From Bacteroidales bacterium (GTDB taxonomy: Bacteria; Bacteroidota; Bacteroidia; Bacteroidales; F082), in contig JAFYUH010000195.1 of the NCBI GenBank assembly GCA_017549605.1, forward strand, positions 1 to 35,132: 35,132 bases of DNA, in the 5' to 3' direction. Numbering within the stretch: position 1 is the stretch's first letter; the number at the start of each line of letters is the position of its first letter. The position numbers were made by a program, and so were the translations under genes. The notes beneath the pieces were generated by a model. It saw only the letters and a list, made by a program, of their open reading frames with translations. It had not been told where the DNA came from and searched no databases. Positions 5,234 through 27,326 of the stretch are shown here, piece by piece.

Positions 5234-6730
5234 ATGTCAGAGCAAAAACAGGTATTACACATAGAACCCAAGAAAGGATTCACAGTTGCTCAAAGCAATG
5301 AGCATTTGCGAAACTGGACTGAGAAAGGTTGGCTGTCTGCAAACGATAACGGGCGTATAGACCGCTCCAGACAGCATCTGAATTTTGAAATTGTAAAAGG
5401 CGGTATAGTACAACCCATCAATAAAATGATGAGCATCCCTAAACTCCTGATGGAACGTTTAAAGGAACTGGGATTGAAAGATCCGAATGATGGATTGGCA
5501 GAACCTAGATTTAGGACTACTGCTGACTTCATCATTAGTGGCTCTCACGACATGCTCCACAAACTTGCTTTTGGTGAACAGGATGTACGTTTTGATTTTG
5601 CCGATGCCAACGAAAATATAGAGGATGTTGAACACAATGGTGTCAACGCACATCTTAAGCGTATGCCTGAAATAGAGTTATGGGCGAAAGACATGTACAA
5701 TCTATTGAGTGGCAAATTCGGTGAGGATAATGTAATATCCTTTGTTGTACATTGCGATGAGCAAACACCACATGTACATGCCGAGGTTCTTCCAATAAAG
5801 GATGGCAAACTATCATACAAAAAGGTGTTTTGTGGTGCCGACAAGTATGAATACAGACAACGTACATTGGACTTACATGATGCTTTTGCGGAGGTTAATA
5901 AAAAATGGGGATTGAATCGAGGCGATAGTATCACTGTTACCCATCGGAAGCATAGAAGTACTGAAGAATATCGACGGGAACTGTCTAATCAATGCAGTAC
6001 GCTAGAAAGAGAAGTTGACGAAAAATATGCCACACTATCTAAGCTTAATGGACAGATACGTTTGGCAGAGACCCGAATCAAAGGATTGCAGACCATGATA
6101 TCCAACCTTGAGTCAAGCCGTGATGCAGTTGAAGTAGAAATTGATAGAATCCATTTGAAACTTTCTTCTGGTGATGTGGATGTGGAACAACAGCAACAAT
6201 TGGCACAAAAGGAGGAAACTCTTCAAAAGAAGCTGGACTCCATATTGCTCAAATTGGAGGATAAACGCTCAAAACTATCTGAGGCGGATCAAAAACTGGT
6301 TGAGCTTCTAGAACAGTTGGAACAGGCACAAGCTCGGCACGAAGACCTCGAAACACAGATAAAAGATGCCAATGTAAATGTATCTCATATAGTGATGAAC
6401 AAGATAGGAGCGGAGGCCTTATGGTCAGTTCTCAGGGATTTCACAACAGCTAAGCCTCATATGACACCTGAAGAGTTGGAACGTTTTGATGGTTCATTCA
6501 TTAATGAAATGTCTAAGAGAGGTGTTCATATTATTGCTTGTGCCTCATTGCTTGCCATGGGTATGATAGACCAAGCTACCAACTACGCAGAAAACTGTGG
6601 CGGTGGAGGAACCTGTTGTGACAACAATTGGGGTAAGGATCCAGAAGAGGATGAACGCAACTGGCTTCGTAGATGCTTGGCAAAATCACGTATGATGATG
6701 AAACCATCTGCCAGACGTATGAGAAGATAA
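5234..6730 (+). CDS. MobV-family relaxase (Mob/Pre plasmid recombination enzyme)
   Basis: This 498-residue protein would nick oriT and lead the single strand into the T4SS. The motif VVHCDEQTPHVHAEV, with H173, D175-E176, H180 and H182, is the metal-binding HxDE-x-TPHxH signature of the Mob_Pre (PF01076) family. N-terminal residues about 15-52 (NEHLRNW, then RIDRSRQHLNFE) fit the family's first motif. Residues about 248-385 form a long coiled coil, typical of MobV C-terminal halves and likely used for dimerisation or partner contact. A Cys/Gly-rich patch (GGGGTCC) comes before the very basic tail SARRMRR. Start ATG 5234 gives the full N-terminal motif. The next gene begins 32 bases downstream. 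Confidence 0.9.
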   Translation: MSEQKQVLHIEPKKGFTVAQSNEHLRNWTEKGWLSANDNGRIDRSRQHLNFEIVKGGIVQPINKMMSIPKLLMERLKELGLKDPNDGLAEPRFRTTADFIISGSHDMLHKLAFGEQDVRFDFADANENIEDVEHNGVNAHLKRMPEIELWAKDMYNLLSGKFGEDNVISFVVHCDEQTPHVHAEVLPIKDGKLSYKKVFCGADKYEYRQRTLDLHDAFAEVNKKWGLNRGDSITVTHRKHRSTEEYRRELSNQCSTLEREVDEKYATLSKLNGQIRLAETRIKGLQTMISNLESSRDAVEVEIDRIHLKLSSGDVDVEQQQQLAQKEETLQKKLDSILLKLEDKRSKLSEADQKLVELLEQLEQAQARHEDLETQIKDANVNVSHIVMNKIGAEALWSVLRDFTTAKPHMTPEELERFDGSFINEMSKRGVHIIACASLLAMGMIDQATNYAENCGGGGTCCDNNWGKDPEEDERNWLRRCLAKSRMMMKPSARRMRR

Positions 6731-6762
6731 TATTAAAACTTAATCAAATCATTCAGAAAGAT

Positions 6763-7494
6763 ATGAGACATTTTTTTATAATGACAATATGTCTAGTTAT
6801 TGCAGCCTTTGATGCAAAGGCACAGGATTCTGTACGACAGGCAAACTGCTTGACCGAAACTTTGTACAGATATATATGCGATTGCGGATGCCATAATCAT
6901 CCGGTAAATAATTATAGTGGTTTAAATTCGCTCAGGGCACGTTTAGCCAACAAGTCTTGGGACGGACAATCTGAACGTAGTTCAACTATCGATGTTTCAT
7001 TCAGTGGCAAAGTTGCGGATTCAGATTCAACAATGATGAACACATCATCTAGTGATGTACATGGAAATTCCTCCCATAAAAACAATGGTACGGAATATAA
7101 CATGACAGCAAATACAAGCAGCTTATCTTTTGAGTATTGTTACAAAATGGATAAAGGTGAAGTTGCTATAGGTGTGCCGCTTTATCTTTTCTTTAAGATT
7201 GCCACAGCTGACCTTACTGATGAAGCACAACAAATAAACCTAAATGCCATAGCAGATTTGGCGAAACAGTGGCATCTTGGCGTTAAAGTGACTGGTGCGG
7301 CAGATTCAGCTACTGGTACTCATGATGGCAATTTTGCCCTTTCAAAAGCGCGTGCAAATTATGTCGTTAGCCTGTTAAAGAAAAAAGGTGTACCTGATGA
7401 ACAAATAACTCAGGCTGCCGAAGGTGGCATCTCTGTGTTAACTCCAATCTCTGCAAACAGACATTGTAAAGTAGAACTCTATAAGATTAACTAA
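6763..7494 (+). CDS. OmpA-family outer-membrane/periplasmic protein
   Basis: The frame is open from 6673, inside the relaxase gene, but ATG 6763 is preferred because it begins a clean signal peptide (MRHFFIMTICLVIAAFDAKA, cleavage before QDS). The mature protein has Cys pairs near the N-terminus (CDCGC), a Ser/Thr-rich region and a C-terminal domain from about residue 150. In that domain, GNFALSKARANYVVSLLKKK, GVPDEQI and the ending NRHCKVELY match the OmpA-like peptidoglycan-binding fold. A 243-residue OmpA-like protein following a relaxase may anchor or stabilise the transfer apparatus at the envelope; that role is inferred. Confidence 0.7.
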   Translation: MRHFFIMTICLVIAAFDAKAQDSVRQANCLTETLYRYICDCGCHNHPVNNYSGLNSLRARLANKSWDGQSERSSTIDVSFSGKVADSDSTMMNTSSSDVHGNSSHKNNGTEYNMTANTSSLSFEYCYKMDKGEVAIGVPLYLFFKIATADLTDEAQQINLNAIADLAKQWHLGVKVTGAADSATGTHDGNFALSKARANYVVSLLKKKGVPDEQITQAAEGGISVLTPISANRHCKVELYKIN

Positions 7495-7499
7495 AATAT

Positions 7500-7531
7500 A
7501 TGCCCATTGTAAGTCTCGTTACAATGGGCAT
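7500..7531. terminator. Bidirectional terminator between convergent operons
   Basis: TGCCCATTGTAA (7501-7512) and TTACAATGGGCA (7519-7530) are perfect complements with a 6-base loop, plus one closing A-T pair. The hairpin lies between the ends of the plus-strand OmpA-like gene (7494) and the minus-strand ArdC gene (7553). A/T-rich bases flank both sides, so it can serve both operons. Confidence 0.8.
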
Positions 7532-7552
7532 TATATCACTTGCCAATTTGTG

Positions 7553-8755
7553 TTATCTGTGTCTAGAAGGTCGATACTCTTCTTCAATCTGTTTGGCTGC
7601 TTCTTGCTGTGATTCTAGAGAATCATCCTGATCTAATTGTTCGGTTTTGGCTGTTCTACTCCTGAACTGAGAATAATCTGCTTTTTCTCCTTTCTCCATT
7701 TCTGCTTGAATAGCCGTGATTCTTTGTGTTACCATACTTGTGCACCTTTTAACTTCATTAAGCACGGTTTTCAGAAAATCCGGGCTTTCATGAAGCGAAC
7801 CTAGCCATGACTTTAAATAGGCAGCACTGTCGTTTTTTACGTGTTTTGTCAACCCGAACTGACTGGCGATGACTGCAGCAGATAATTCTGCCGTCAGTTC
7901 TTCCTTTGCATAATCTTGAGACCCAAAGGTTGCACCTGTCTTTAATCTATCAAGTCTAGATGCAGCGCCAGTTGCATGAGCACACTCATGAAGAGTATTT
8001 GTTGCAAATGCCTCACCATCTACAAACTGCTCTCGTGTCGGCATAACTATTTCATCTTTTGAAATGGAGTAATATGCATTGTCACCCTTTATTTGTTTTA
8101 TTGGACAATAATATAGATTATCATCAATCATCTTGTCTATTGCTGGATGGCTACTCATGTCACCCTCATTACGTAGCTGTTGACTACCAATTTCTCCCTT
8201 TAACTTTTCATATAAATCAGGTCGAACTTCTTTAAGATTAGTCTGAGCTGCTACATTAAACACATTGAATGTTTGCTGTTTGGGATAGACTTTATAGTTT
8301 GCTTGTTCTTCCTTGGTAAGATTACGATAGTCATCATAGGGAATCTTTTCTTTTGTCTCAGGGTTGATAACCGTGTAAGTAGTCAAAAACACAGGGAAGG
8401 ACTTTTCTCCTTTATTGATGGTAACGGCAGGAAGTTTATTTCCTTCGCTATCCGTAAGAGGTGTTTTGCCATCCTTGGTTTTAGAAAAATTTAACCCGAT
8501 TATCCGGTCAAAAGTCCCCCATACAGGAATTTCATATCCCATCTTTTCTGCTTGCATCATTAGCATTAGAGCATTCCCACCATTGTAATTTCTTCCAGAA
8601 AGGTTATGGGGTGGACGAGAGATACCTGGAGTAAACCAAGGCTTTTTCCAATCTCCCTGAAGATGCTCGATTTTCTCAATCATGAGTTCTGTAAACTTTT
8701 CAAGAGCTTTATCTGTTGCCGAAAGTCCCTCGGCATTGTTGGTTTTCTTTGCCAT
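7553..8755 (-). CDS. ardC: ArdC-type antirestriction protein (ssDNA-binding domain plus zincin)
   Basis: This is a 400-residue protein. Residues about 14-170 match the ArdC N-terminal domain (DUF1738/PF08401): WKKPW, then NLSGRNYNGGNALML, PVWGTF, KGEKSFPV and QTFNVFNV. Residues about 200-330 form the zinc metallopeptidase-like domain with HECAH at 256-260 and a downstream Glu (E290 in ELTAELSAA). ArdC proteins protect incoming single-stranded DNA from restriction in the recipient. The tail IEEEYRPSRHR ends in Arg/His. It is the last gene of the accessory operon, 6 bases after the OB-fold gene. The zinc ligands appear complete, unlike those of its paralogue at 10360. Confidence 0.88.
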   Translation of the reverse strand: MAKKTNNAEGLSATDKALEKFTELMIEKIEHLQGDWKKPWFTPGISRPPHNLSGRNYNGGNALMLMMQAEKMGYEIPVWGTFDRIIGLNFSKTKDGKTPLTDSEGNKLPAVTINKGEKSFPVFLTTYTVINPETKEKIPYDDYRNLTKEEQANYKVYPKQQTFNVFNVAAQTNLKEVRPDLYEKLKGEIGSQQLRNEGDMSSHPAIDKMIDDNLYYCPIKQIKGDNAYYSISKDEIVMPTREQFVDGEAFATNTLHECAHATGAASRLDRLKTGATFGSQDYAKEELTAELSAAVIASQFGLTKHVKNDSAAYLKSWLGSLHESPDFLKTVLNEVKRCTSMVTQRITAIQAEMEKGEKADYSQFRSRTAKTEQLDQDDSLESQQEAAKQIEEEYRPSRHR

Positions 8756-8760
8756 AACAT

Positions 8761-9366
8761 TTACTCATTAGTAGATTGCTTGTTCCATTGAGTGATTGAT
8801 CTTACCTGACAACAGATATTTTCTTTTCCGTTATAAACAGTGAATTCAAGTTCACCCTCTACATCAATTCCTACCTTAGGTTGAAGAAAAGAAACTCGTT
8901 CCGGCGAAAAGTCTACAAAATGCACCCAAATATATTTGTAGTCGTTTTCATTGATTTTCTCTGAACTGTAAGCGTCAAATATTCGATAGTTCCCTTTCTT
9001 ACTCTCTTTTTCAGGAATATCTTTGCTACCTGTAGTGCCTCTGAAAGTGATTGAACCGCTAATAGAGTCATCATCTTGCGTATCGAATTCGATATTCTTG
9101 GCAGAGAGGTTATAATAGATTGATTCGTCTCGTTTCCTAAAGGTTAGTATACCTTCGATTTTTACTTTTTTGCCTATGCCAGTATTTGGAGGCAAATCCG
9201 TTTGGCCATCTTTTGATACACTAATATCAATGGTCTTATTGATACCAGATTTAGCCTTGATAACGTTTTGGATGCCAAATGTAAAGTAGGAACGACCTTC
9301 TTTGTCAGTTCTTGATTCTACATCACGTGAGATTGTTCCAACGATAGTCACATTACATTTTATCAT
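8761..9366 (-). CDS. Tandem OB-fold, SSB-like protein (201 aa)
   Basis: Residues 1-95 resemble an SSB-type OB fold: NVTIVGTISRDVE, then SYFTFGIQN, VKIEGILTFR and YYNLSAKNIEF. Residues about 100-195 repeat the same strand order more loosely, ending VDVEGELEFTVY-type and CCQVRSITQW segments, so the protein looks like two OB folds in one chain. It has no acidic SSB C-terminal tip. Its ATG overlaps the stop of the upstream glucosaminidase gene (ATGA at 9363-9366). A role in coating ssDNA next to ArdC is likely but inferred. Confidence 0.6.
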   Translation of the reverse strand: MIKCNVTIVGTISRDVESRTDKEGRSYFTFGIQNVIKAKSGINKTIDISVSKDGQTDLPPNTGIGKKVKIEGILTFRKRDESIYYNLSAKNIEFDTQDDDSISGSITFRGTTGSKDIPEKESKKGNYRIFDAYSSEKINENDYKYIWVHFVDFSPERVSFLQPKVGIDVEGELEFTVYNGKENICCQVRSITQWNKQSTNE

Positions 9367-10388
9367 GATCTTGTTCTTTTTACTGAGTTATTATTTATCG
9401 AGTTCATCCCTTCCTCAAAATTTCTAGAGGCCAGTTCGTTCCCGTTATTCGCCATGCTGTTAATGGATTGCTGGCTTTGCTGAACAACAGGTGCATCTTC
9501 CATATTGTCTATTTGGATAGCTAGTGCCATGAGTCCTGCAAACATGGTACTGGCTATATCAACAATGGGATCCATAGAATACTGTGTGTTACCATCCGAA
9601 CTGTCGAAAAATCTTTTCCAAGAGTCCTCGTTACCAGTATCGGCCACTATTGAATTGAAGTAGTTTTTCTCCTTCGCTTCTGTTTGTGATTTCTTTTCAG
9701 CTTCATTTGTAAGGGATGTACTCGTTGTTGAATGGTTATTGATTGTTGATTGTTGAATGTCCTTTTGATTTGACAAGGGTGCTGTATATCCCTGCTCGAT
9801 AACTAATTGGTCATATTTGTCAAGTCCATGTGAGCGTATGACCGCTTGTAGACTAGCTGCGTATCTACTATCTGTTGCATATCCGGCATTTTGTAGCCCT
9901 TTGGTCCAGCCGATATAATCATCGGGTGATAGTTTGAACAGTTCAGAATATCTCTTATTTGATTTAAGAAATAGAGAGTGATGTTCATAACTATCCGCAA
10001 CAGAGGCGTATTTACAAAATTTCTCGTTTGGTTTGTCGTCGGCATACACAAGATAACTGCCACCATTTTCCAACCATGAAGAAGTGGCTTTGATGCCAAA
10101 ATGGTTGTTCCCTTTTCTAGACAACTCACTCTGTCCACTTCCGCTTTCTAAAATACCTTGTGCCAGAGTAACTGATGCAGGGATACCATATCGACGCATC
10201 TGCTCCATGGCCGCTTCTGCATATTGTTCCACATATTCACTTGATTTGCTCATTGTTCTTGATATTGAAGTGTTATGAAATTTTAACGGTTTGATGTCAT
10301 TAATAGCGTGGGTCTGACTAGACAGTAATAACAGCAAAAATAGAGCTGTCATATTGCGTTTAACGATGGTAACCATGGCTGGATTCAC
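9363..10388 (-). CDS. Secreted glucosaminidase-type peptidoglycan hydrolase (VirB1-like role)
   Basis: A signal peptide ([18 protein letters not shown], about residues 11-28) is followed by a glucosaminidase domain (PF01832) at about 55-190. This includes [14 protein letters not shown] with the expected catalytic Glu81, NNHFGIKA and [16 protein letters not shown]. Such enzymes open peptidoglycan to let a T4SS or flagellum pass. A Ser/Thr/Asn-rich linker and a second hydrophobic stretch (about 275-295) come before the basic end SVKRTRS. The start used is GTG 10388 with a purine-rich stretch a few bases upstream; ATG 10376 is equally possible. Either overlaps the end of the ArdC-like/MutS-I gene. 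Confidence 0.8.
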
Positions 10389-12276
10389 GTTGTTCTTCTT
10401 GATTTATTGGTGTTCTACTATCTTTTGCTGTTTGTTGTTTTGGGATATTCAATTGATCACAGATTGCCACTCTTACACCAGCGCGGATTAAACGTGGGAG
10501 ATAAGTATCCAAGCTATGATATGGGAATCCTGCCATTTCCAGAGGTTTGTCGCTCTCATCTTTTACTTTGCTGGTTCTTGTTAGTGTTATACCTAATATG
10601 TTCGAAGCTTTCTGTGCATCTTCGGCGTAGGTTTGATAGAAATCACCGACTCTGAAGAGAAGAACAGCGTCAGGATGTTTAGATTTAAGATCTTTCATCT
10701 GACGGAGTATTGCTGATAAATCCTTAGTCTCTTTATCCTTTGTCTCTTCTACTTCTTTTTCGACTATCTGTTTTTCTCTTAGAATATCCGCAAATAGTGT
10801 TCCGGCAAGATGACGCTTATATTCACTTTTGTCTGGAGCTACCCAAAGCCGTTGCCATTGTGAAGAAGAAATTTCTCTTGGTTGTATTTTTTCTAATCCA
10901 TCAATGGTTGGTGAGCAAAGTATTTTACTTTCGTCTGACTTGGTTTTGAAAATGTTTACCTTTTGTATTTTTGTAAGGTCAACATCTTCAGGAGCTGTTC
11001 GGAATAGATCAACCCGCATTCCTGGATTTGAAGTTGCCTGACTATAATACTTCTGTGCCAATTCTTGACGCAGTCTTTCCATTAACATATCATTGCCTTG
11101 TTTTGCAGTATGAAAGAATCTGTTTACATCACTTTTTTCTGGATAAATAGAAAAGCCATTTTCAGATTCAGGTTTGATATATAGTGCCCACTGATTTTTG
11201 TCATCTCTAATCATCACAACCTTAGCGTTGATAGTATCAGTTTGCGAGTCAGCAGGTTCCAAAACAGGTATAAGAGGAATCTTTTCTCCTGAATCTGCTC
11301 TGCTCAGCATAGACATCGTATTGTTCATGTCTGCCTCAAGTGACTCCATGAAATTGGGATTTTCTGATATCATTTTTTTCCAATCGTCTACCATATTGAT
11401 ACTTTCTTCTGTGAGTTTAGCAGGCATCCCAAACTGGTTCATCTTGATAGCGGAAACTAGTTCCACAATCAGACGTTCCCGTTGTTGGTGCTCTATCGAT
11501 GGCATAGAACCACCTTCCATCTGCATACCTTGACGTGCAAGACGTTGTGGATGGCCGGTTGCAGAGACAATTAGACGCAGTGCCTCTTGAACATACTCCG
11601 AGTAACTGTTGAAATGTTTTTGTGCTGGGATAAATACGATATCTTTATTTGAATCATATTTAGAAATTCCACTACCATCTTTTCTGATCGGCACTAGATT
11701 ATCCTTTATATTCAAGAGAAAGGCATTCACTGCTATTCGACGTTGCTTATCTCCTTTTTCTGTAAATCCTCGTTCAGTTTCAGTCCCATTATTCTTAACT
11801 ATTTTGTCAAAGTCTTCCTTATTGACAGACGGCATCGTGGTCTGCTCAATATTGAATAATGTACGCACTTCACGTTCACGGATTGGTTTGTATGAATTCT
11901 GCTCTTCATTGGATAACTTGCAATATTCTTCTCTTGAAATCTTTTCATGTTCGTCCGCTTTCTTTTGGTATTCATTCCATGAGTACCAAAAAAAGGGAAC
12001 TCCTTTTTCTCCTGATTGAACACCTTCACCACGTTTTTTACTTTCAGAAAACAGTGTGTATAGGTTGGTGTGATATCCGTTTGCATCGCTATGGAGTGAT
12101 AATGTAAGGGAATTAAATGCTGAAAGCATTGCCCCTTTAGGAAAAATTTGAGGCATGGTCTTTCCTTTGGCATTGAGAAGGATTCCTCCATTAGATTTGG
12201 CATTTTCAAGTGCATTGATAAGCAGTTCTGTCTGGCGTTGAACTGCATGTTTCTCTTGTTGGCTTTTTTCAGACAT
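10360..12276 (-). CDS. Inactive-looking ArdC paralogue fused to a MutS domain I-like module
   Basis: This is a 638-residue protein. Residues about 10-330 follow the ArdC layout ([33 protein letters not shown], then the zincin region). The HECAH motif of the neighbouring ArdC aligns with R234-L-I-V-S238 before the conserved ATGHPQRL, so both His and the Glu of HExxH are gone, although the downstream Glu (E272) remains. Residues about 522-612 match MutS domain [35 protein letters not shown], then [16 protein letters not shown] and VAICDQL. The mismatch-contacting Phe is present (F546), while the Glu of F-x-E is Gln548. DUF3945-like material may link the two. The tail is SSHGYHR. Such multi-domain chains resemble the polyvalent proteins of conjugative elements. 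Confidence 0.75.
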
Positions 12277-12294
12277 ATCATTTGATTTTAATTA

Positions 12295-13743
12295 TTATCG
12301 TTGCGTGAGTGAACGATTAGTTTCACGTGATTCGGCTTCAAAACGTTCTTGTGCATTTCCTACATGTTGCATCTGGTCTGTACGTTCAAGAATAGCATTA
12401 GCTAATGTATTTAGTGGTAGTGCTCCTTTATTATACGCATCTGCAACACGTTCAGGAAGAGTGATGCTGACAGGAATTTTGTCTATCGTTGCAATCATTG
12501 TATTTCCGTTTAATATCGGTTTTTCAATGCGTGGATTAAGCTTCTCATCAGCATATTGTCGATAGATATTTTCAGATCCACGTTGACGTTTATCCAATTC
12601 TTCATGACCGGCTTTGTTTAACAGGTTGGCTCCTCCAAAACCAATGAGTGTCATCTTTAATAATGGATTTCTGACAAACATACCTGCTACAATACTTGCT
12701 ATCGGCATAAGGTTCTCCCTAAGTCCGAGACTTTTTGTTTTACCCGTGAAAATGCCGACAAGAATATCCGGAAGCATTGCCAAGATATATCCTGCATTAT
12801 GGCCTATGTCACTTAATCCGTTTAGGCCAAATTCTGATAATAGATTCTGCCACCCATTGCTCTTAGACTCTTTAGGTAATTCATTTTTTGGAGATTCAAC
12901 TTTTTCTATTGTAATCTGACTTTCCTGTGTATGATTATCAGTTGGCATCAAAGTTTCCTTTTCATTGGTAATTTCAGTTGTAGAAGCCTTATACTGTTTT
13001 GAACTTTCAGAATCGGTTGTCTTCTCTTTCTTTTTACTTGCGATATACTCCTCTCTATATTCTGGGAGTATAACCATTGGAATATCATCAGTCATGTTGT
13101 AGTTATCAATCTTTGGCTTTGCTGAATTATTCTTAGGTTTATCATCTTTTGCAATTGATGCAAGTGCATTTATTGTTAAGTCTGCACCTATAAACTTGAG
13201 GCCGTTTACAACGCTTGTTCCACCTAACGCTACAAAATCTGTTGTTGCGCCTAATCCCCAGCCAAGTCCTTTTTCCCATTGACTGGGATTATATAGCACT
13301 TCGCCTTTCTCTTCAATTTCTTTTTGTAAAGGTGATTTATTCAACTCATTAGATAAACTAAAGATGCTGTTTCCTGCGGCTGAACGTATGATGTACTCTA
13401 TAGACGACTTTGGCATCTGGTCTGAGACCATTTTGTCAATCATCATATTTTCAAGTGTTGGCGTGACTGTGACTTTTTCTTTCTCTAATTCCAATTTAAC
13501 CATTTGCACATAATCTTCTACGGTTTTGGAGTTCCATTTACCTGTACGTCTTAGCATTTCGATTTGAGCTGAATGTGCAGTCGTTCCTCCGTCAGGGCCA
13601 ATACCACCAGCGAGAATCGAGGCAGGCGAGAATAAATGTTCTTTCATCTCTTCTGCTTGCTTGCTCTGTAGATAGTCACGCACCTTATTCATGATAGGTA
13701 TGACCTTGTTATTGAAAATCTCTTTATCTGCCACGGAAATCAT
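12295..13743 (-). CDS. Unrecognised membrane protein of the accessory operon (482 aa)
   Basis: ATG 13743 overlaps the upstream gene's stop by four bases. The chain has a helical N-terminal part (1-150), two Gly-rich hydrophobic stretches at about 165-190 (GWGLGATTDFVALGG), a polar, Lys/Ser/Glu-rich linker (about 205-300), and hydrophobic segments at about 315-380 (AGYILAMLPDILVGIF, ASIVAGMF, TLIGFGGANLL). The tail contains RETNRSLTQR, again Arg-rich. No family is recognised. The Gly-rich membrane segments resemble those of the 228-residue neighbour at 14890, and the two may form one membrane assembly. Confidence 0.55.
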   Translation of the reverse strand: MISVADKEIFNNKVIPIMNKVRDYLQSKQAEEMKEHLFSPASILAGGIGPDGGTTAHSAQIEMLRRTGKWNSKTVEDYVQMVKLELEKEKVTVTPTLENMMIDKMVSDQMPKSSIEYIIRSAAGNSIFSLSNELNKSPLQKEIEEKGEVLYNPSQWEKGLGWGLGATTDFVALGGTSVVNGLKFIGADLTINALASIAKDDKPKNNSAKPKIDNYNMTDDIPMVILPEYREEYIASKKKEKTTDSESSKQYKASTTEITNEKETLMPTDNHTQESQITIEKVESPKNELPKESKSNGWQNLLSEFGLNGLSDIGHNAGYILAMLPDILVGIFTGKTKSLGLRENLMPIASIVAGMFVRNPLLKMTLIGFGGANLLNKAGHEELDKRQRGSENIYRQYADEKLNPRIEKPILNGNTMIATIDKIPVSITLPERVADAYNKGALPLNTLANAILERTDQMQHVGNAQERFEAESRETNRSLTQR

Positions 13744-14036
13744 AGATTAAGTTGTTGATTGAGAAGTTGCTCCCTTGTCTGTTGAATAGCGTTGTGGTAA
13801 ATCTCCATCTGTTTGGGGAAATATTCCTCAAGCCATTCATCCTTTTCAATTTCGTCATGTATAAATAGAATGGCTAGTTGGCGTGTTATTTCTACACTAG
13901 CTTCACCATCTTTACGATTGTTGAACCATGCCTTTGTCCACCATCTAATTCCTGCTTGATCTGGATATACACTTACTTCCCGAGGTATATCAAAACTTTG
14001 TAAGCTGATGTCCAAATCGGAGAGGGGGTCTATCAC
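13740..14036 (-). CDS. Unrecognised small soluble protein (98 aa)
   Basis: This is a 98-residue, mostly helical protein with aromatic content (IRWWTKAWFNNR at about residues 30-41) and an acidic middle (HDEIEKDEWLEEYFPKQ). It has no signal peptide or membrane helix. It sits 11 bases after the M23-like gene and overlaps the next gene's start by four bases (ATGA). Function is unknown; the tight packing supports a real gene. Confidence 0.6.
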   Translation of the reverse strand: MIDPLSDLDISLQSFDIPREVSVYPDQAGIRWWTKAWFNNRKDGEASVEITRQLAILFIHDEIEKDEWLEEYFPKQMEIYHNAIQQTREQLLNQQLNL

Positions 14037-14047
14037 TCCACTATCTG

Positions 14048-14878
14048 CTATTGCTTGTTCATAGACTTTTTTTTTAATTGTTCATTCCATGTCGACAAGT
14101 AGGTATTATGACACAACGCAAGGTAGTTGAGAAAATCAGCTATGAGTAGATTCTGTACTTTTTCAGCTAATGGTATGCTTTTTCTTCCTAAACCCATTGG
14201 ATTCTCCATTGAGGGCATAGTCTCAAAGAAATAGTTTTTAATGGAAGCCATTGTAAGTACATTCCTTAGAGACTGCTCTGTCCTGGATGGTAATAAATAT
14301 TGGCCGCTATTTAAATCAGTCATATATACAGGGAAGAAGCGTAGCAGCAACTCCTCTATTTCTGTTTTATCTGCATCAAACTTAGTGTGGAAATCCGCAT
14401 CAATAGTTATAAAATCAGATGGGTCGAATGGTTTCTTTTGTTGTTGCATGGAACGTATGTTACCATATATCATGGTCAAAAATTCCAATGGGTTTAACTC
14501 TTCACCATTGTAACGCACTTCCATATGGAGAATATCGCCACTGACACTAACAATATCCCCAGCTTTTACAGATGTTCCGTAATTGGTTAGTATATTGCTG
14601 AGATGACCGTATGTCACTTCATAATTGCCATATCTTATTATTTGATATGTACCATGAATAGCATCTGTGCCTATTCCCGAAACGGTTCCGCTTGCTATAG
14701 CTGACAGCAAGTACCGAGGTGCTTTGAAATCGACCCCATGATGGAAAAACTCGACACCTGTGTCAAGGTGCTTTTGATTGCCATAACCAAGTGTCATCTC
14801 AACTTCTTTGTCACGCTCCTCAAAAGGCATGCAATAACCAGAGGGTGACTTTAAAATCATTTCTTGTGTATATTTCAT
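14048..14878 (-). CDS. M23/LytM-like peptidase-fold protein, catalytic His missing
   Basis: Residues about 28-130 of 276 match the LytM/M23 fold: FFHHGVDF supplies the H-x-G-V-D zinc motif (H46, D50), VTYGHLS the conserved GH (H92), and GDILHMEVRYNG the final strand. In active enzymes the last motif is HLHFEV; here the first His is Ile116 and only the zinc ligand H118 remains. The zinc site is kept but the general-base His is gone. No signal peptide is visible, which is also unusual for a wall hydrolase. Residues 140-276 are helical and unknown. It may act as a wall-binding or structural factor rather than an enzyme. Confidence 0.7.
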   Translation of the reverse strand: MKYTQEMILKSPSGYCMPFEERDKEVEMTLGYGNQKHLDTGVEFFHHGVDFKAPRYLLSAIASGTVSGIGTDAIHGTYQIIRYGNYEVTYGHLSNILTNYGTSVKAGDIVSVSGDILHMEVRYNGEELNPLEFLTMIYGNIRSMQQQKKPFDPSDFITIDADFHTKFDADKTEIEELLLRFFPVYMTDLNSGQYLLPSRTEQSLRNVLTMASIKNYFFETMPSMENPMGLGRKSIPLAEKVQNLLIADFLNYLALCHNTYLSTWNEQLKKKSMNKQ

Positions 14879-14889
14879 ATCTTATAATG

Positions 14890-15576
14890 TTATCTTCTTG
14901 AACGATGTATCTGTTCTGTTTCTGCAGCTGTAGACATTGTTTGCTCTTTTGTTTGGGTTCTTACATTTGCTTGATATTGATTCATATCATTGCTTTTTTG
15001 AGAATTATTACCAATCATCATCATTGCAAGTACAGCACCGGCTATCTTTCCCATCCAACCAAAACGACCGAATAATAGGAAAGATGACAAAACCAATCCC
15101 ATAATTCCCAATCCTGAGACTTTACCCTGGAGTAGATTATCCGTAAAATTTCCAAGCATGTTACTTGTATTACCGGATGTGACTCCACCTATAAATTCGG
15201 TTATGCCATTCATTTTGGAGTCTACATTACCCATAGTGGATGAAATGGTATCACTCATATTGCTTACAGAATCTTTAAGGTCACGAAGTCCTTCTGTCGT
15301 TTGCTGAACCGTATTGCTGATAGCTTCAGTATTTTCCTTACCTATTAGAGCATCACTGACAATCCCAACAACACTCTCATCCGTAGTAAGCTTTTGCCAA
15401 CCGACATATCCTAATGCACCTCCAACGGTTGCTGTTTTAAGAGCTTGCCCAGCTCCTTTAATGGTCTGTTGTGGATGCAATACTGCTTTACCTGTTGTTT
15501 CAACAGTAGCTGCAGCACCTTTGCCTATCCATTTGGCTGCTTTTGTTCCTAATTTTAATAATGATGCCCAACTCAT
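14890..15576 (-). CDS. Unrecognised Gly/Ala-rich membrane protein with amphipathic segments (228 aa)
   Basis: The N-terminal 60 residues are a series of Lys/Ala/Gly amphipathic stretches (KLGTKAAKWIGKGAAATVE). A middle Thr/Ser/Asn/Met-rich helical region (about 85-140: LRDLKDSVSNMSDTISSTMG) follows. A strongly hydrophobic pair of segments lies at about 155-190 (GIMGLVLSSFLLFGRFGWMG, KIAGAVLAMMMIG). The tail is ETEQIHRSRR. The layout recalls membrane-inserting or pore-like proteins, but no family is recognised. It lies between the M23-like gene and the VirB5-like pair in the same operon. Confidence 0.55.
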   Translation of the reverse strand: MSWASLLKLGTKAAKWIGKGAAATVETTGKAVLHPQQTIKGAGQALKTATVGGALGYVGWQKLTTDESVVGIVSDALIGKENTEAISNTVQQTTEGLRDLKDSVSNMSDTISSTMGNVDSKMNGITEFIGGVTSGNTSNMLGNFTDNLLQGKVSGLGIMGLVLSSFLLFGRFGWMGKIAGAVLAMMMIGNNSQKSNDMNQYQANVRTQTKEQTMSTAAETEQIHRSRR

Positions 15577-15588
15577 AATTTTGTTTTT

Positions 15589-16281
15589 TTATGGTCTAAC
15601 ATTTTTTCCTATACTTTTCCAGCGTTGGAATGCTGACTTACTGATATTATTTATGTCTGCTTTTGCTGGTTGGCGGTCTGTTATCTCATTCCATACATCA
15701 TTCATAGAGGTGTATTTGACAGCTCTGGTGAGACGTATGAGCTTCTGATTCATGACTTTTAGCTTAGGTCTTATCCCGAAGACGGCTTCTATGCGTTCCT
15801 TCTCGGTCATTTTTATATCTGAAAGGCAGAGGGTACGTACATCATTGACAATTTCTACGCTTTGCAGGATAATTTCTCTATACATTTTGTTGCGGTTTGT
15901 TGATAAAGCAACTGCTACAGCATTACTTGGACTGTTGGTTATCTGTGTAGACAAACCTTGTAAATTTTCTGTAAGCTTCTGTATCTCATGATAGAAACCA
16001 TAAATCTGAGCAGCATAGACAATAATACCTCTAAAACTATCTAGATATTCATTGAACTCCTTGTGAAGTTTATATGTGTTATCCACTTCCTCTTCAATCC
16101 AGATATGTCCAGTTGTTTCAAGAAGCATTGCATTTTTTTGTGCTTCAAGAGTTTTTTCAGCTTTTTCAGTATAGAGAAGAACCATCGCTGCCAAAGTAGG
16201 ATCCATAGATTGTGCAGTGATTTTTCCACTCAACAGTGTGAACAAAAGTATAATGAGATATAGTCTATGTTTTTTCATCAC
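15589..16281 (-). CDS. Secreted VirB5-like helical protein, copy A (TraI/DUF4141-like)
   Basis: A signal peptide (residues 1-23, LIILLFTLLSGKITAQ) leads into an all-helical 230-residue protein. The segment LCLSDIKMTEKERIEAVF resembles the S-M-T-x-K-E-R-M-D-V stretch of the CTnDOT TraI (DUF4141) family as I recall it. These proteins are periplasmic and may play a VirB5-like part. It is clearly paralogous to the next gene upstream: KYTSMNDVWNEITD here against RYYTMIDVWNNATE there. Its C-terminus carries the I-x3-A-x2-RW signature (NNISKSAFQRWK) shared with four other proteins in this window. Its start lies 4 bases after the stop of copy B. Confidence 0.6.
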   Translation of the reverse strand: MMKKHRLYLIILLFTLLSGKITAQSMDPTLAAMVLLYTEKAEKTLEAQKNAMLLETTGHIWIEEEVDNTYKLHKEFNEYLDSFRGIIVYAAQIYGFYHEIQKLTENLQGLSTQITNSPSNAVAVALSTNRNKMYREIILQSVEIVNDVRTLCLSDIKMTEKERIEAVFGIRPKLKVMNQKLIRLTRAVKYTSMNDVWNEITDRQPAKADINNISKSAFQRWKSIGKNVRP

Positions 16282-16284
16282 TAA

Positions 16285-17031
16285 TTAGTTATTGGTTCCT
16301 ATTCTGGCTGCTCTTATCCATCTACTATGAGCTTGGTCTGCTATATCACCATGTGATCGGTCTATTAATCCTTCCGTGGCGTTATTCCAGACATCAATCA
16401 TGGTATAATAGCGTAACGATAATGTCAACTGTGACAGTTTATGATTGAAAGCGGCTAGTCGGTCATTAATTGCCCAAAGTGTGGTAGAACGTTCTGCTCC
16501 AGTGAGCATATTTCCGTTTCCACCTTTGGCTATGGCATCACGAAGTGTTGTATATACAGTTATCAATTCCGTTGCAGTTTCCACATATAGATTATTCATG
16601 GAAAGCGTAGCTGCAATACCTTGTGGATTCTCGGCTATGGCTTTCTTTAGATTACATAAATTGATAAATAGCCTGACACCATCGTCATAAAGATGTGTAG
16701 CAGCCTTTAATGATGAAGCATATCCATCAATACTCTTTAAGTAGGAGTTGTACTTTTTCTCCCATTTATGTATTTGAGTAAATTCTGCTGCTATGGTATT
16801 CTGTAGTAACGCTGTTTTCTTTTGACCTTCAATTTGATCTTTTATCTGTCCATTTATCAATTCGTTACCTTCTGCCAATGCTGCCCATTCGAGAGGGTTG
16901 GCAGAAACAACCTGTGCGTTCACTCTTGTTGACGCAATAAGTGAGGCTAATAGTATCAGCCCAAAAACAATCACCCATTTTTGAGCTTGACTCAATGGCC
17001 TTTTATCTTTAATTGTAGTTCGCAAACTCAT
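16285..17031 (-). CDS. Secreted VirB5-like helical protein, copy B
   Basis: This is a 248-residue protein with a longer N-terminal region before the hydrophobic signal (WVIVFGLILLASLIASTRVNA, residues about 19-39). The mature part is helical and parallels copy A: PLEWAALAEGNE, a Lys-rich helix, LSLRYYTMIDVWNN, and the ending GDIADQAHSRWIRAA with the I-x3-A-x2-RW signature. Its start overlaps the PH-domain gene's end by 23 bases. A tandem duplication with copy A is the simplest explanation. A surface or pilus-tip role is inferred from similarity of layout to VirB5, not from a direct family match. Confidence 0.6.
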   Translation of the reverse strand: MSLRTTIKDKRPLSQAQKWVIVFGLILLASLIASTRVNAQVVSANPLEWAALAEGNELINGQIKDQIEGQKKTALLQNTIAAEFTQIHKWEKKYNSYLKSIDGYASSLKAATHLYDDGVRLFINLCNLKKAIAENPQGIAATLSMNNLYVETATELITVYTTLRDAIAKGGNGNMLTGAERSTTLWAINDRLAAFNHKLSQLTLSLRYYTMIDVWNNATEGLIDRSHGDIADQAHSRWIRAARIGTNN

Positions 17032-17485
17032 GTATATTCATTCTTGAACGGTTATATGAAACTCTTTCCCTTAGTATATCCACTAAATCGGACTTCTCTT
17101 TCATACCGATTATATCTAATTTGGGTGTACTTTTATCACCAGAGTATATGCTGACGGTCTTTAAACCCATCAATTGTTGCATGAAAGTACTACGCTCATC
17201 ATAATCCACAACTCGGTATAATTCAACAAAATCACGATTCCTTGTAAATACCCCGTGCTCGTAAATTAGCTGTTGCTCTGTAATGGTATATTCCATACCC
17301 CGTAGGTAGATGTAATTGTAATAAGCATGAAATGTAATGGCAAGCGCAATACAAAAGAAGATTGACGAGAATGGTATATCCATACCTCCAACAATGAACA
17401 TAACTACAGCAAACAAGATGGAGGGTAATTGGTCAATTATAAATTGTCTCCAGTCTGGCTTTATATATATTGTTTGATATCTCAT
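17009..17485 (-). CDS. Bacterial PH-domain membrane protein (bPH_2/YdbS-like)
   Basis: This is a 158-residue protein. Two adjacent membrane segments (about residues 17-33 and 38-53) are followed by a bacterial PH-type domain at about 58-145: YTITEQQLIYEHGVFTRNRD, then VVDYDERSTFMQQLMGLKTV and SIYSGD. This is the layout of bPH_2 (PF03703, formerly DUF304) proteins, in which a helical hairpin anchors a PH-like domain facing the cytoplasm. Their function is mostly unknown. It starts two bases after the Toprim gene's stop and overlaps the next gene. A PH-type protein in a transfer operon is unusual. Confidence 0.75.
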   Translation of the reverse strand: MRYQTIYIKPDWRQFIIDQLPSILFAVVMFIVGGMDIPFSSIFFCIALAITFHAYYNYIYLRGMEYTITEQQLIYEHGVFTRNRDFVELYRVVDYDERSTFMQQLMGLKTVSIYSGDKSTPKLDIIGMKEKSDLVDILRERVSYNRSRMNIHEFANYN

Positions 17486-17487
17486 AT

Positions 17488-18852
17488 TTATCTGCGATAA
17501 TGGCGTTTTTCTTCATTTGATTCCTCTATCTCAATTGAACCGTCACCGTCAATATCACTACCAACGGGCTTTTTTAGGGACTTGCTTTCATTAAGAAGTT
17601 GCTCGTTCCAATCTTTATAACCATCAATAGGTATTTCTCTAGTGACTTTTACTATACAGTCATTCACCATTTTGTAAAATGTCGTATATGCCTTATCTCT
17701 CTCATCACCTAAGGTTTGTTTATCTTCTGGGTTGAGATAAGCAGTTGCATATTCTTCGGAAAGACGAAATGCTGAGAAATATTGTTTTTTTACAGCTTCA
17801 GGTAGTTTCGAAAACGCTTCAGCTTTATCATCATCGATTTCTATATTTCCAGGAGTGTCCAGAAACTTTTTAGCAACTTCACTGTCCGGTTTAAGAGTCT
17901 TGACTAATCCTTCAAAGTTTGCAACAAACTGTTTACCGGCAACATCATTATCAAAACATAAATGGAAGGTTGCTTTAGGAGCATGACTGATTACACCATC
18001 CATCTGCTTTAATGTAGGTGTTCCGCCTGTAGATACGAAAACACCATCTCTAAGATCCTTGACTTCTCGGTGTCTGAGTTGAAAGTAAGCCATAGCATCA
18101 TAAGCACTCTCAAACAGATAAACGTGTTTAGCTTCATCTAATTTAGTGTCATTAGGCGATGCAATCCACAATCCTTCACTGCCATTGCTTCCGGCTGCTT
18201 TTCCTTTATAGGCACTTTCACCATCTTTACGCATCCTGCCTCTTTCCTCAAAACCGACTGTAACACCTTCTTTTCCTGGAATTACAAGAGGGAAACTGAG
18301 GTTTCTGTAATATGTACCAGACTGAGAAGTGGATTTTTTTGATGCAAGCAGGATATGATGACGAAATGCAAATTGTGTCGTTAAATCAATGCCACGATGC
18401 TTGAAATATGGATAGAACATTTTTTGACTATCTCGATCTCTTCCATCAAATGACCTGATGCTGTAATCATTGATATTAAAAGGTTTCAATGATTGATCTT
18501 CTGACTTGATGTCTTTCACTTTCTCTTCACAAGGTGCATTGAGCAAACGGCTACACACTTTGTTGACCAAATGGTCTAGATTCATCCCCGGAGAATAATC
18601 AATAAATAAATCAGGATGTTCCTTGATGAATGAAATGATATTATAAGATTTTTGTGCAGGAGGTTGAAAGCAACAATTACCGTTCTGAGTGACAATGAAT
18701 TTATTGCCTCTTATCCTACGTCCATCTCTGTCAAGCATGACAAATGATGGATAACGTAATCCATCTCTTTTATTCTGTACATAACCAGCATCTATCAAAA
18801 GTTGTTGGATGCTTATTCGTTGCTTATAATCTTCGTAAGATAAATCTGCCAT
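17488..18852 (-). CDS. Toprim-domain primase-like protein (TraP-type)
   Basis: The start is set at ATG 18850-18852 (454 residues). A longer frame to 18903 would overlap the preceding gene and adds a sequence unlike the family N-terminus. The N-terminal ~105 residues (SIQQLLIDAGY, then GNCCFQPPAQKSYNIISFI) resemble the CHC2-type zinc-finger region of Bacteroidetes mobile primases but show no obvious CHC2 cysteine set. The Toprim core is FESAYDAMAYF (E248, D252) and LCFDNDVAGKQF (D301, D303, G306), the metal-binding Glu and DxD motifs. It probably primes the incoming strand or resembles CTnDOT TraP. The C-terminus is Glu-rich, then KRHYRR. Confidence 0.75.
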   Translation of the reverse strand: MADLSYEDYKQRISIQQLLIDAGYVQNKRDGLRYPSFVMLDRDGRRIRGNKFIVTQNGNCCFQPPAQKSYNIISFIKEHPDLFIDYSPGMNLDHLVNKVCSRLLNAPCEEKVKDIKSEDQSLKPFNINDYSIRSFDGRDRDSQKMFYPYFKHRGIDLTTQFAFRHHILLASKKSTSQSGTYYRNLSFPLVIPGKEGVTVGFEERGRMRKDGESAYKGKAAGSNGSEGLWIASPNDTKLDEAKHVYLFESAYDAMAYFQLRHREVKDLRDGVFVSTGGTPTLKQMDGVISHAPKATFHLCFDNDVAGKQFVANFEGLVKTLKPDSEVAKKFLDTPGNIEIDDDKAEAFSKLPEAVKKQYFSAFRLSEEYATAYLNPEDKQTLGDERDKAYTTFYKMVNDCIVKVTREIPIDGYKDWNEQLLNESKSLKKPVGSDIDGDGSIEIEESNEEKRHYRR

Positions 18853-20763: not shown

Positions 20764-20988
20764 TTAAGCGTTACCATTCTCCATTGCTTGATCTAGCAGT
20801 TCAGCTTTCCAATCTAAGAATGCTTCAGCACTGTTTTCATTGATGTCTAAATTTCTATTGCTACAAAACTCCAGATATTCGTTTTGCCATTCCTGGGAAT
20901 GCAAATCAATAAATGTGACCAGATTGATTTCATTGGATTGATACATCTGAATCAATTCATCTTCGCTGTAAAATTTATCTTGTTTCAT
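20764..20988 (-). CDS. Unrecognised small acidic protein (74 aa)
   Basis: This is a 74-residue, helical, acidic protein (KFYSEDELIQMYQSNEINLV at the start). It lies 11 bases from each neighbour, downstream of the DUF4099-like gene, in the same operon. It has no membrane helix or signal. Its composition could suit a partner of the large proteins beside it, but no function is assigned. Confidence 0.6.
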   Translation of the reverse strand: MKQDKFYSEDELIQMYQSNEINLVTFIDLHSQEWQNEYLEFCSNRNLDINENSAEAFLDWKAELLDQAMENGNA

Positions 20989-24728: not shown

Positions 24729-24742
24729 ATTATTCTCGTTTT

Positions 24743-25255
24743 TTAGTGTTTACATGTGGGTATCTTTAAGCCAATGGCGATACCAGTCCGAAATACATCT
24801 TCTCTATTCGGTATCATTACATCTACTTTTGCTTGCCAGTATAGTTGCCAACCGTAGCGTAGGACATAGTTTTGTTCATAGCCAAAATGTAAACCGGCAA
24901 GAAAGTTTTCAGTATTACTTCCTGCAGAAGCACCTATTCTCAATGAACCATATCTGTTTCGTGATTGAATGATACAGGGTTTGTATGCGACACCAATGCC
25001 CCAGGTATTATAGTGCTTCCAAAAGGAATCTGAACAAACATGTCCGCATGTTGTACAATCATCCCATTTCAGATAACCATTGGCAAAGACCTCCCAAGCA
25101 TGATGGTATCGCGTCTCATATTCCCAAGACACGGTTGCATCAAGGCCTTTTTCCCAAAGTACACCAGCTCCTAAACCTAATCTGCTCGAATTGTTTTGTG
25201 CTTGTGCCGTAACAAAACACAGTACAGATATCAGCAAAACACATGCTTTTCTCAT
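24743..25255 (-). CDS. traO: TraO-like outer-membrane conjugation protein
   Basis: This is a 170-residue protein with a signal peptide (MRKACVLLISVLCFVTAQAQ). The mature chain alternates polar and hydrophobic residues with many Tyr/Trp (VSWEYETRYHHAWEVFANGY, GWQLYWQAKVDVMI, RTGIAIGLKI), as in a small outer-membrane beta-barrel. Two Cys pairs (CTTC, then GHVC) are unusual. Size, signal and position directly after the TraN-type gene match TraO of CTnDOT-like operons. The name rests on order and general features rather than on a decisive motif. Confidence 0.6.
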   Translation of the reverse strand: MRKACVLLISVLCFVTAQAQNNSSRLGLGAGVLWEKGLDATVSWEYETRYHHAWEVFANGYLKWDDCTTCGHVCSDSFWKHYNTWGIGVAYKPCIIQSRNRYGSLRIGASAGSNTENFLAGLHFGYEQNYVLRYGWQLYWQAKVDVMIPNREDVFRTGIAIGLKIPTCKH

Positions 25256-25258
25256 AGT

Positions 25259-26107: not shown

Positions 26108-26117
26108 ATTAATCTTA

Positions 26118-27323: not shown

Positions 27324-27326
27324 AGA

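What the first reader, a model, noticed from the sequence alone, without database searches (positions are those of the whole stretch)
6690..17530. Shared Arg/His-rich C-terminal tails on unrelated accessory proteins and the relaxase: candidate T4SS translocation signal
Seen: several non-homologous proteins end in short basic tails, often after a Glu-rich stretch: ArdC (IEEEYRPSRHR), ArdC-like/MutS-I fusion (SSHGYHR), Toprim protein (NEEKRHYRR), Gly-rich membrane protein (ETEQIHRSRR), 482-aa membrane protein (RSLTQR), glucosaminidase (VKRTRS), and the MobV relaxase (SARRMRR). Known: VirD4-dependent substrates such as VirE2/VirF use Arg-rich C-terminal signals, and ArdC-type proteins act on DNA entering the recipient. 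Inference: this could be a transfer tag by which the element co-delivers early-establishment proteins. Neighbours without the tail (OB-fold protein, 98-aa protein, RW-tail family) would then be donor-side. The membrane proteins and the exported glucosaminidase bearing the tail are the weak point of this idea.
Basis: partly seen in the sequence, partly recalled or inferred. Interest (0 to 1): 0.7.

Follow-up and report, generated by a model that had tools for sequence, protein, structure and literature searches.

The report
Shared tail tag on conjugation proteins
Several unrelated proteins of a gut-bacterial mobile element end in the same very short positively charged tag, kept across distant relatives and probably acting as the label by which the DNA-transfer machine picks proteins to send along with the DNA, though nobody has yet tested that transfer.

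Summary
In related Bacteroidales loci the last residues (Glu about -8, F/Y/M at -3, H/R/K at -2, Arg at -1) persist behind a variable linker: 45 of 55 clusters (<70% identity), against 1 of 287 controls and 0 of 80 clusters of seven other module families.

Other Bacteroidota elements repeat the pattern with other letters: -RGP[KR]L on relaxase, Toprim, DUF3945 and Fic proteins in Hymenobacter; K/R-G-phi-x-[LM] on many MobV relaxases, some primases and two of three CTnDOT-like relaxases. T4SS-operon proteins mostly lack it (exception: 2 of 7 170-aa proteins). A type IV secretion recruitment signal is the best explanation (about 0.7). Translocation is inferred, not shown; counter-evidence includes R388 ArdC and untagged ArdC in Hymenobacter.

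The parts
17491..17526 (-). C-terminal tail (last 12 residues) of the Toprim/DnaG-like protein 17488-18903
   Evidence: score above all 287 control ORFs; 51 of 59 distinct homologues match the tail regex; coordinates checked
7556..7591 (-). C-terminal tail of the ArdC protein (ArdC-N + MPTase-PolyVal) 7553-8755
   Evidence: domains; score above all control ORFs
10363..10398 (-). C-terminal tail of the ArdC-N/MPTase/MutS-I polyvalent protein 10360-12276
   Evidence: tail kept in relatives with and without a MutS-I match
14893..14928 (-). C-terminal tail of the Gly-rich membrane protein 14890-15576
   Evidence: 13 of 17 clusters match
19100..19135 (-).
   Evidence: 99.7th percentile; homologues end MRRGR/GLGR/GHGR and others, 0 of 46 match the strict regex
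6692..6727 (+). C-terminal tail of the MobV relaxase 5234-6730
   Evidence: 98.3rd percentile; relatives KKSKR, KRKKR, RKLKR, KKQKR, KKSMHR
12298..12333 (-). C-terminal tail (variant) of the 482-aa protein 12295-13743
   Evidence: 97.9th percentile; homologues RTLSQR / RTRGIQ / RTFGIK
21003..21038 (-).
   Evidence: 95.8th percentile; homologues GIKR, GLHK, GHMR
9366..9401 (-). C-terminal tail (weak variant) of the glucosaminidase 9363-10388
   Evidence: 89.5th percentile only; homologues ENLKR / LQRK
8761..9366 (-). OB-fold (SSB-like) protein, no tail
   Evidence: SSB match below Pfam cut-off; 0 of 10
13740..14036 (-). 98-aa protein, no tail, highly conserved
   Evidence: 0 of 31
20764..20988 (-). 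74-aa strongly acidic protein (net charge -5 to -18 in 17 clusters), no tail; speculative adaptor
   Evidence: charge; 0 of 38
21890..24064 (-). type IV coupling protein (YWFCY / TraG-D family), proposed reader of the tag
24072..35126 (-). T4SS operon (TraN, TraM, TraK, TraJ, VirB4 and others); no window protein here scores above 87.5% for the tail

Best explanation
The tails are a short linear recruitment signal for the element's own type IV secretion machinery. Shown: unrelated cargo families (Toprim primase-like, ArdC/MPTase/MutS-I polyvalent proteins, Gly-rich membrane protein; in weaker or variant form relaxase, 482-aa, 551-aa, DUF4099 and glucosaminidase proteins) end in a conserved few residues behind a variable Glu/Gln-rich linker, while most structural T4SS proteins and other neighbours do not. 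Inferred: the tail is displayed on a flexible linker and bound in the donor by the coupling protein (21890-24064) or an acidic adaptor such as the 74-aa protein, so that the protein passes through the T4SS and acts early in the recipient (priming, antirestriction, wall and membrane passage). Different element families use different letters (phi-[HRK]-R; R-G-P-[KR]-L; phi-K-[LI]; K/R-G-phi-x-[LM]), as expected if signal and reader co-evolve; the co-evolution itself was only glanced at, with 12 coupling proteins.
For: Enrichment: 45 of 55 clusters of three families against 1 of 287 control ORFs and 0 of 80 clusters of seven other module families. Cross-prediction: a model from Toprim tails alone puts 17 of 18 ArdC and 12 of 17 Gly-rich clusters above the control 99th percentile; the ArdC model 19 of 20 Toprim and 12 of 17 Gly-rich; the Gly-rich model 13 of 18 ArdC and 15 of 20 Toprim; other ORFs of the same loci pass in 4, 2 and 9 of 498. 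C-anchored information 3.5-3.9 bits at the last residue against a mean of 0.8-1.3 in the linker; Glu at -8 in 40 of 50 ArdC and 42 of 58 Toprim. The tail outlasts domain change: MutS-I lies before it in the window protein, L107 and (variant end GRGR) L094, and has no Pfam match in L041, L054 and L103 at the same place in the operon. Hymenobacter: -P[KR][LMIVF] ends on 9 of 18 Fic/Toprim/DUF3945/relaxase genes against 2 of 270 other genes, first plasmid left out (0 of 287 controls), the Fic gene beside a VbhA-family antitoxin gene. VbhT, a Fic toxin, was shown to be transferred by a conjugative T4SS and shares its signal with the relaxase (PMC5675462, passages). MobV relaxases of the ordinary sort end in L, M or V in 12 of 14 distinct C-termini, 9 of them as [KR]-G-phi-x-[LMV] (counted by hand) against 0 of 287 controls; the DnaG-like primases found beside them in five loci end KKKGGFHL, KKKGLKM (twice), GRGRKM, KRGLRR; relaxases of another Pfam family end RKGLG[LM] in 2 of 3. 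A T4SS of the window's kind lies on the same contig as the module, roughly 30-65 kb away, in B. ilei (two copies), B. ndongoniae and P. gordonii.
Against: No translocation data. R388 ArdC acts when expressed in the recipient and donor expression did not complement (PMC7213743, passages; the authors do not rule out export). In pED208 work, removing the C-termini of four substrates with positively charged ends had no significant effect, although cloned positive C-termini generally supported transfer (PMC11288057, passages). ArdC is untagged in Hymenobacter (0 of 7), pBF9343 and pBFY46. Toprim lacks the tail in Prevotella L036 although that plasmid has a T4SS, and in B. faecis L162. Plasmid L170 has none of the tails. 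The 170-aa T4SS-operon protein matches the strict pattern in 2 of 7. Relaxases of L166, L167, L168 and pBF9343 do not carry their element's tail exactly. A MobV in module locus L068 ends RGIKL, not phi-[HRK]-R. Hymenobacter and CTnDOT-like coupling proteins are 59-61% identical though their tails differ. Tagged membrane proteins are unusual T4SS cargo. Element borders were not mapped, and the coupling gene is split in the B. ndongoniae copy.
Confidence: 0.7

Rival explanations
1. Donor-side docking tag: the tails bind a common scaffold (coupling protein, bPH membrane protein, or an acidic adaptor) and assemble a relaxosome or transfer complex, but the proteins are not themselves translocated.
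For: The tagged set includes membrane proteins and sits in one operon with untagged neighbours; recognition by the coupling protein would leave the same conservation pattern.
Against: The same kind of tail is on Fic proteins beside VbhA-family antitoxins and on relaxases, which point to export; R388 ArdC is needed in the recipient (PMC7213743, passages).
Confidence: 0.17
2. C-terminal degron: the tails mark the proteins for AAA+ proteolysis (ClpXP- or Lon-like), keeping levels low in donor or recipient.
For: Short extreme C-terminal motifs on flexible linkers are typical degrons (recalled); some large proteins between coupling gene and module end in acidic residues plus AA, reminiscent of the ssrA tag (recalled).
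Against: Letters differ between element families; relaxases and primases share them; control ORFs of the host lack them (1 of 287).
Confidence: 0.05
3. Protease recognition site: the MPTase domain of the polyvalent proteins trims these tails in trans.
For: Tagged proteins are encoded beside MPTase proteins; MPTase was proposed to process polyvalent proteins (PMC5512222, passages); in Hymenobacter the ArdC-type protein itself is untagged.
Against: In the window family the MPTase proteins carry the tag themselves. Whether an MPTase lies near the MobV/primase pairs was not examined.
Confidence: 0.04
4. Generic basic tail that binds DNA or membrane, or chance/compositional bias.
For: Tails are basic; 83 of 287 control ORFs end in K or R anyway; many of the proteins are expected to touch nucleic acid.
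Against: The position-specific pattern is shared by non-homologous families and absent from the OB-fold neighbour; chance is excluded for the full pattern.
Confidence: 0.04

Closest known systems
Arg-rich C-terminal translocation signals of Agrobacterium Vir effectors (VirF, VirE2 and others)
   Same: Extreme C-terminal, positively charged, shared by unrelated substrates; the coupling protein VirD4 has a role in substrate recognition (PMC3937733 and PMC10025392, passages).
   Different: Here only the last two or three residues are fixed basic, with hydrophobic or aromatic at -3 and a Glu-rich approach, and the cargo is conjugation-establishment proteins, not plant effectors. Transfer is untested.
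VbhT (Fic toxin with BID signal) of the Bartonella conjugative plasmid pVbh
   Same: Fic protein of a toxin-antitoxin pair that shares its C-terminal signal with the relaxase of the same plasmid (PMC5675462, passages; Hymenobacter plasmids L163 and, with a one-residue extension on Fic, L169).
   Different: BID is a domain of its own; the Hymenobacter signal is a five- to six-residue tail shared also by Toprim and DUF3945 proteins.
E-block C-terminal signal of Legionella Dot/Icm effectors
   Same: Glu-rich stretch near the C-terminus (PMC10025392, passages).
   Different: Here the Glu-rich stretch is followed by a fixed basic terminus.
Polyvalent proteins of conjugative elements (ArdC-N, MPTase, MutS-I)
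   Same: Domain content and genomic context; transfer with DNA was proposed (PMC5512222, passages and one section).
   Different: The term 'secretion signal' does not occur in that text; the shared tail unites polyvalent proteins with other cargo.

Membership tests
T4SS C-terminal translocation signals (general kind) | Located at the C-terminus and shared by unrelated substrates | tested here: met
   (sharing and place; that they are substrates is not shown)
T4SS C-terminal translocation signals (general kind) | Carried by bona fide substrates such as the relaxase | tested here: inconclusive
   Window-type MobV: 6 of 8 sequences scoring 126 bits or more, window included, end in a basic residue plus R (the misses: L194, a 315-aa frame, and L197 ending RRWW), but only 2 of the 6 in the loci set match the strict pattern. 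Hymenobacter: 2 of 5 annotated relaxases end RGPRL. Ordinary MobV 12 of 14 end L/M/V; CTnDOT-like relaxases 2 of 3 end KGLG[LM]
T4SS C-terminal translocation signals (general kind) | Sufficient and/or necessary for translocation | not testable with these tools
   needs a Cre reporter assay
Agrobacterium VirF-type Arg motif | Several spaced Arg residues within the last ~20 residues (spacing recalled, from no call) | tested here: not met
   Only the last few residues are basic; positions -8 to -12 are Glu-rich
Legionella E-block | Glu-rich stretch near the C-terminus | tested here: met
   Glu at -8 in 40 of 50 ArdC and 42 of 58 Toprim; not so in the Hymenobacter tails, which are Pro-rich
BID or XVIPCD signal domains | Sequence-conserved domain of about 100 or more residues before the terminus | tested here: not met
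   Only a variable linker precedes the tail in the three main families; no such Pfam domain in the proteins scanned
C-terminal sorting signals (LPXTG, PEP-CTERM, T9SS CTD) | Motif plus transmembrane helix plus basic tail, or a CTD behind a signal peptide (recalled) | tested here: not met
   No Pfam sorting domain in the window's tagged proteins; a polar linker directly before the tail; no dedicated sorting-signal or signal-peptide predictor was run
Polyvalent proteins | ArdC-N with MPTase-PolyVal, MutS-I as partner domain | tested here: met
MobV relaxase | Mob_Pre / MobV profile above cut-off | tested here: met

The most novel reading that the evidence does not exclude
The tag defines a whole delivery kit: the T4SS sends not only primase and antirestriction proteins but also wall hydrolases without signal peptides and hydrophobic proteins, which assemble in the recipient envelope into an entry conduit for the incoming strand (a conjugative counterpart of the phage T7 ejectosome; comparison recalled). 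Across Bacteroidota each conjugative lineage has its own tag dialect, read by its own coupling protein, and mobilisable elements carry the dialect of their helper.
Probability: 0.2. Interest if true: 0.9.

Novelty: new variant of a known kind. Interest (0 to 1): 0.74.

Why it matters
To my knowledge (recalled, not searched as such) it is largely open which proteins travel during conjugation in Bacteroidota; the polyvalent-protein paper proposed transfer, and the term 'secretion signal' does not occur in it. A readable tail would let cargo be listed from sequence alone, would suggest recipient-side functions for unnamed proteins (Gly-rich, 482-aa, 551-aa), and gives a simple test: five residues to remove. 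The apparent dialects, and their likeness between MobV relaxases, primases and CTnDOT-like relaxases, could make helper specificity of mobilisable elements predictable.

Tried and rejected
Chance and composition: rejected. Homology between tagged proteins as the source of the tail: rejected, since the domains differ and the linkers align poorly. Sorting signals (CTERM type, T9SS): no matching anatomy. Reading the frame around the detached Segatella tail ORF gave nothing useful. Structure prediction could not be run.

Limits of the counts: genes were called by a simple longest-ORF rule; in GC-rich loci (L041, L045) some genes were missed or replaced by shadow frames. The scan returns at most 80 loci and returned 80; many are near copies, hence the clusters. 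The family clustering mixes an M23 family into 'Gluc' (74 distinct rows, of which 27 longer than 330 aa were used). Rows dropped by length before the cluster counts: Toprim 1 of 59, Gly-rich 2 of 29, 482-aa 1 of 43, ArdC/ArdC-MutS 0 of 50. The tail regex was written after seeing the window and first relatives; the cross-family models are less biased. The -P[KR]L pattern was taken from L163 and then counted without it; the Hymenobacter plasmids are partly related, so cases are not independent. Fisher p 1.4e-10 was for a hand count of 9 of 19 against 2 of 269; the recount by script gives 9 of 18 against 2 of 270, one annotated gene not being called. For phi-K-[LI] only 3 plasmids were read, with 3 of 287 controls matching. 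Among the untagged families some models raise RW2 (1-2 of 10 clusters above the 99th percentile with two of the three models), the 98-aa (1 of 4 with two models) and the 74-aa protein (AUC up to 0.66) slightly. The 287 control ORFs come from 20 stretches of the window's genome and 11 of B. ilei, not filtered for mobile elements. One of 3 CTnDOT-like relaxases does not end in KGLG[LM] (L171); the label CTnDOT-like is recalled. Candidate extra tail classes (L170; acidic-AA tails) were not pursued.

Absence in print: searches (open-access library only) listed no paper whose title or abstract start describes a shared C-terminal tail on Bacteroidota conjugation cargo; most listed papers were not opened.

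Papers: PMC5512222 passages and one section; PMC11288057, PMC7213743, PMC5675462, PMC10025392, PMC3937733 passages only; others search listings only.


Full report
Setting. The window is a whole 35,132-base contig (C193) of an incomplete genome whose relatives of the element lie mostly in Bacteroidales. It holds a MobV relaxase, a YWFCY/TraG-type coupling protein, a TraN-TraM-TraK-TraJ-VirB4 T4SS operon, and between them an accessory module. tblastn with the 482-aa protein found six plasmid records; the module was opened in four and another part of a fifth.

Observation. The tails quoted are present as written. In the relatives, gene families were built by iterated HMM search and their ends listed. 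The strict tail pattern is met by Toprim in 51 of 59 distinct sequences, ArdC plus ArdC-MutS in 38 of 50, Gly-rich in 21 of 29; by none of OB-fold (10), 98-aa (31), M23 (43), RW1 (35), RW2 (28), bPH (37), 74-aa (38), TraN (6), TraM (5), TraK (5), TraJ (4) and coupling proteins (5); by 2 of 7 of the 170-aa T4SS-operon family, 2 of 6 MobV, 5 of 43 DUF4099, and 4 of 809 other ORFs. The 482-aa (0 of 43) and 551-aa (0 of 46) families do not match but have their own conserved endings, RGIQ/LSQR/FGIK and RRGR/GLGR. Control ORFs: 1 of 287.

Is it one signal? After collapsing to clusters below 70% identity (tail removed before clustering), 45 of 55 clusters of the three main families match; Fisher p about 3e-45 against the controls and 2e-26 against the 80 clusters of untagged module families. 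A tail model from one family recognises the others: Toprim to ArdC 17 of 18 and to Gly-rich 12 of 17, ArdC to Toprim 19 of 20 and to Gly-rich 12 of 17, Gly-rich to ArdC 13 of 18 and to Toprim 15 of 20 above the control 99th percentile, with 4, 2 and 9 of 498 other ORFs passing. Weaker families (482-aa, glucosaminidase, 551-aa, DUF4099) are shifted the same way (AUC 0.74-0.89 with the Toprim model); M23 and OB-fold stay at 0.48-0.56, 98-aa at 0.59-0.68, RW and 74-aa proteins between 0.47 and 0.74, bPH at 0.23-0.59 over the three models. The last residue carries 3.5-3.9 bits and the linker 0.8-1.3 on average; Glu at -8 is common to ArdC and Toprim. The domain before the tail can change: MutS-I present (window, L107, L094) or without a Pfam match (L041, L054, L103). 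In the Segatella plasmid a 61-residue ORF beside the polyvalent gene ends in SRGFHR and has no Pfam match.

Association with T4SS. In B. ilei (two copies), B. ndongoniae and P. gordonii, a T4SS operon with the window's TraJ (about 750 bits) and coupling protein lies on the same contig, roughly 30-65 kb from the module. The borders of these elements were not mapped; the B. ndongoniae element closely resembles one of the B. ilei ones and its coupling gene is split in two frames. The P. distasonis record L034 shows no tra genes in its annotation, so a module without a nearby T4SS, or an incomplete record, exists.

Other dialects. In pBFY46, pBF9343 and Q1F2-p2 the DUF4099, DUF3945 and Toprim proteins end in phi-K-[LI] (3 of 287 controls do); the B. 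faecis plasmid L162 does not show it. In Hymenobacter plasmids Toprim, DUF3945, relaxase and Fic proteins end in variants of R-G-P-[KR]-L; leaving out the plasmid where this was first seen, 9 of 18 such genes against 2 of 270 others (DUF5712 of L170 counted as a relaxase). The Fic gene lies beside a VbhA-family antitoxin gene in six of the seven stretches (not annotated), though in one of the six (L170) it is untagged. MobV hits were found in 14 of 198 genomes of the order. Together with those of the module loci they fall into two sorts: window-type ones, 6 of 8 ending in a basic residue plus R (for example KKSMHR), and ordinary ones, 12 of 14 distinct C-termini ending in L, M or V. In five loci a DnaG-like primase beside the ordinary sort ends in a similar style (KKKGGFHL, KKKGLKM twice, GRGRKM, KRGLRR). 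Relaxases of another Pfam family, next to CTnDOT-like tra genes (label recalled), end RKGLGL and RKGLGM in two of three. The window coupling protein is 78-79% identical to those of three loci of the same dialect, 47-48% to the B. fragilis plasmids, 34-37% to four Hymenobacter plasmids and 27% to L170; but Hymenobacter and CTnDOT-like coupling proteins are 59-61% identical with different tails.

Mechanism. T4SS translocation signals can be C-terminal, positively charged or hydrophobic, and vary between systems (PMC11288057 and PMC10025392, passages). Relaxases and some primases travel (PMC5512222, passages); VbhT, a Fic toxin, travels with a signal shared with its relaxase (PMC5675462, passages). 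The simplest reading is that the tail is the recruitment label. Steps shown: conservation, modularity, restriction to a subset of proteins, dialects. Steps inferred: binding by the coupling protein or an acidic adaptor, passage, action in the recipient. Against: R388 ArdC works from recipient expression (PMC7213743, passages), C-terminal removal did not matter for four positively charged substrates of pED208 (PMC11288057, passages), ArdC is untagged in Hymenobacter and B. fragilis plasmids, one plasmid has none of the tails (L170), and two tagged families are membrane proteins.

Glucosaminidase family members start without a signal-peptide-like segment, by eye, in 25 of 27 cases, and the 12 of 43 M23 starts printed show none either. 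The window copy has an in-frame upstream start giving a signal-peptide-like sequence; which start is used is unknown. Cytoplasmic wall hydrolases and hydrophobic proteins bearing the tag would fit a kit that opens the recipient envelope; this is the boldest reading and is untested.

Verdict. A real, conserved C-terminal signal on Bacteroidota conjugation cargo, not found described in the searches made; a new variant of the known kind 'T4SS C-terminal signals' if transfer is confirmed.

Noticed in passing
L141, L142, L143, L147, L149 (Bacteroides/Parabacteroides genomes): Several large proteins between the coupling gene and the module end in an acidic stretch plus AA (QPEETAA, ENTVRAA, SQEAAA, QEEDIAA), a second possible shared tail.
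   Followed up: no
L037 12728-12913: A 61-residue ORF ending SRGFHR stands alone between a 1458-aa polyvalent protein, which lacks the tail, and the glucosaminidase.
   Followed up: partly
window 20764-20988: 74-aa protein family, strongly acidic in all 17 clusters, mostly ending NG[DE]A or SGEA; no NCBIfam match. Possible adaptor for basic tails.
   Followed up: no
window 10300-10388: In-frame start upstream of the glucosaminidase gives a signal-peptide-like sequence not seen in the homologues listed.
   Followed up: partly
L163 41227-42627: A Fic protein beside a VbhA-family antitoxin gene carries a DUF4099 domain before its RGPKL tail.
   Followed up: partly
L170 (Hymenobacter NBH84 plasmid 4): A different T4SS type; Fic, Toprim and DUF5712 proteins end SAGIER, TAEITR, SAELDIEM, perhaps another dialect.
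   Followed up: no
L068 19078-20385: A module-bearing locus of Phocaeicola coprophilus carries an ordinary-type MobV ending RGIKL; whether it belongs to the same element is unknown.
   Followed up: no
NZ_OY725765.1 and NZ_OY725888.1: Records labelled as circular plasmids mix module genes with phage tail or chromosomal-looking genes, with no tra genes annotated in the parts read; they may be pieces of integrated elements.
   Followed up: no
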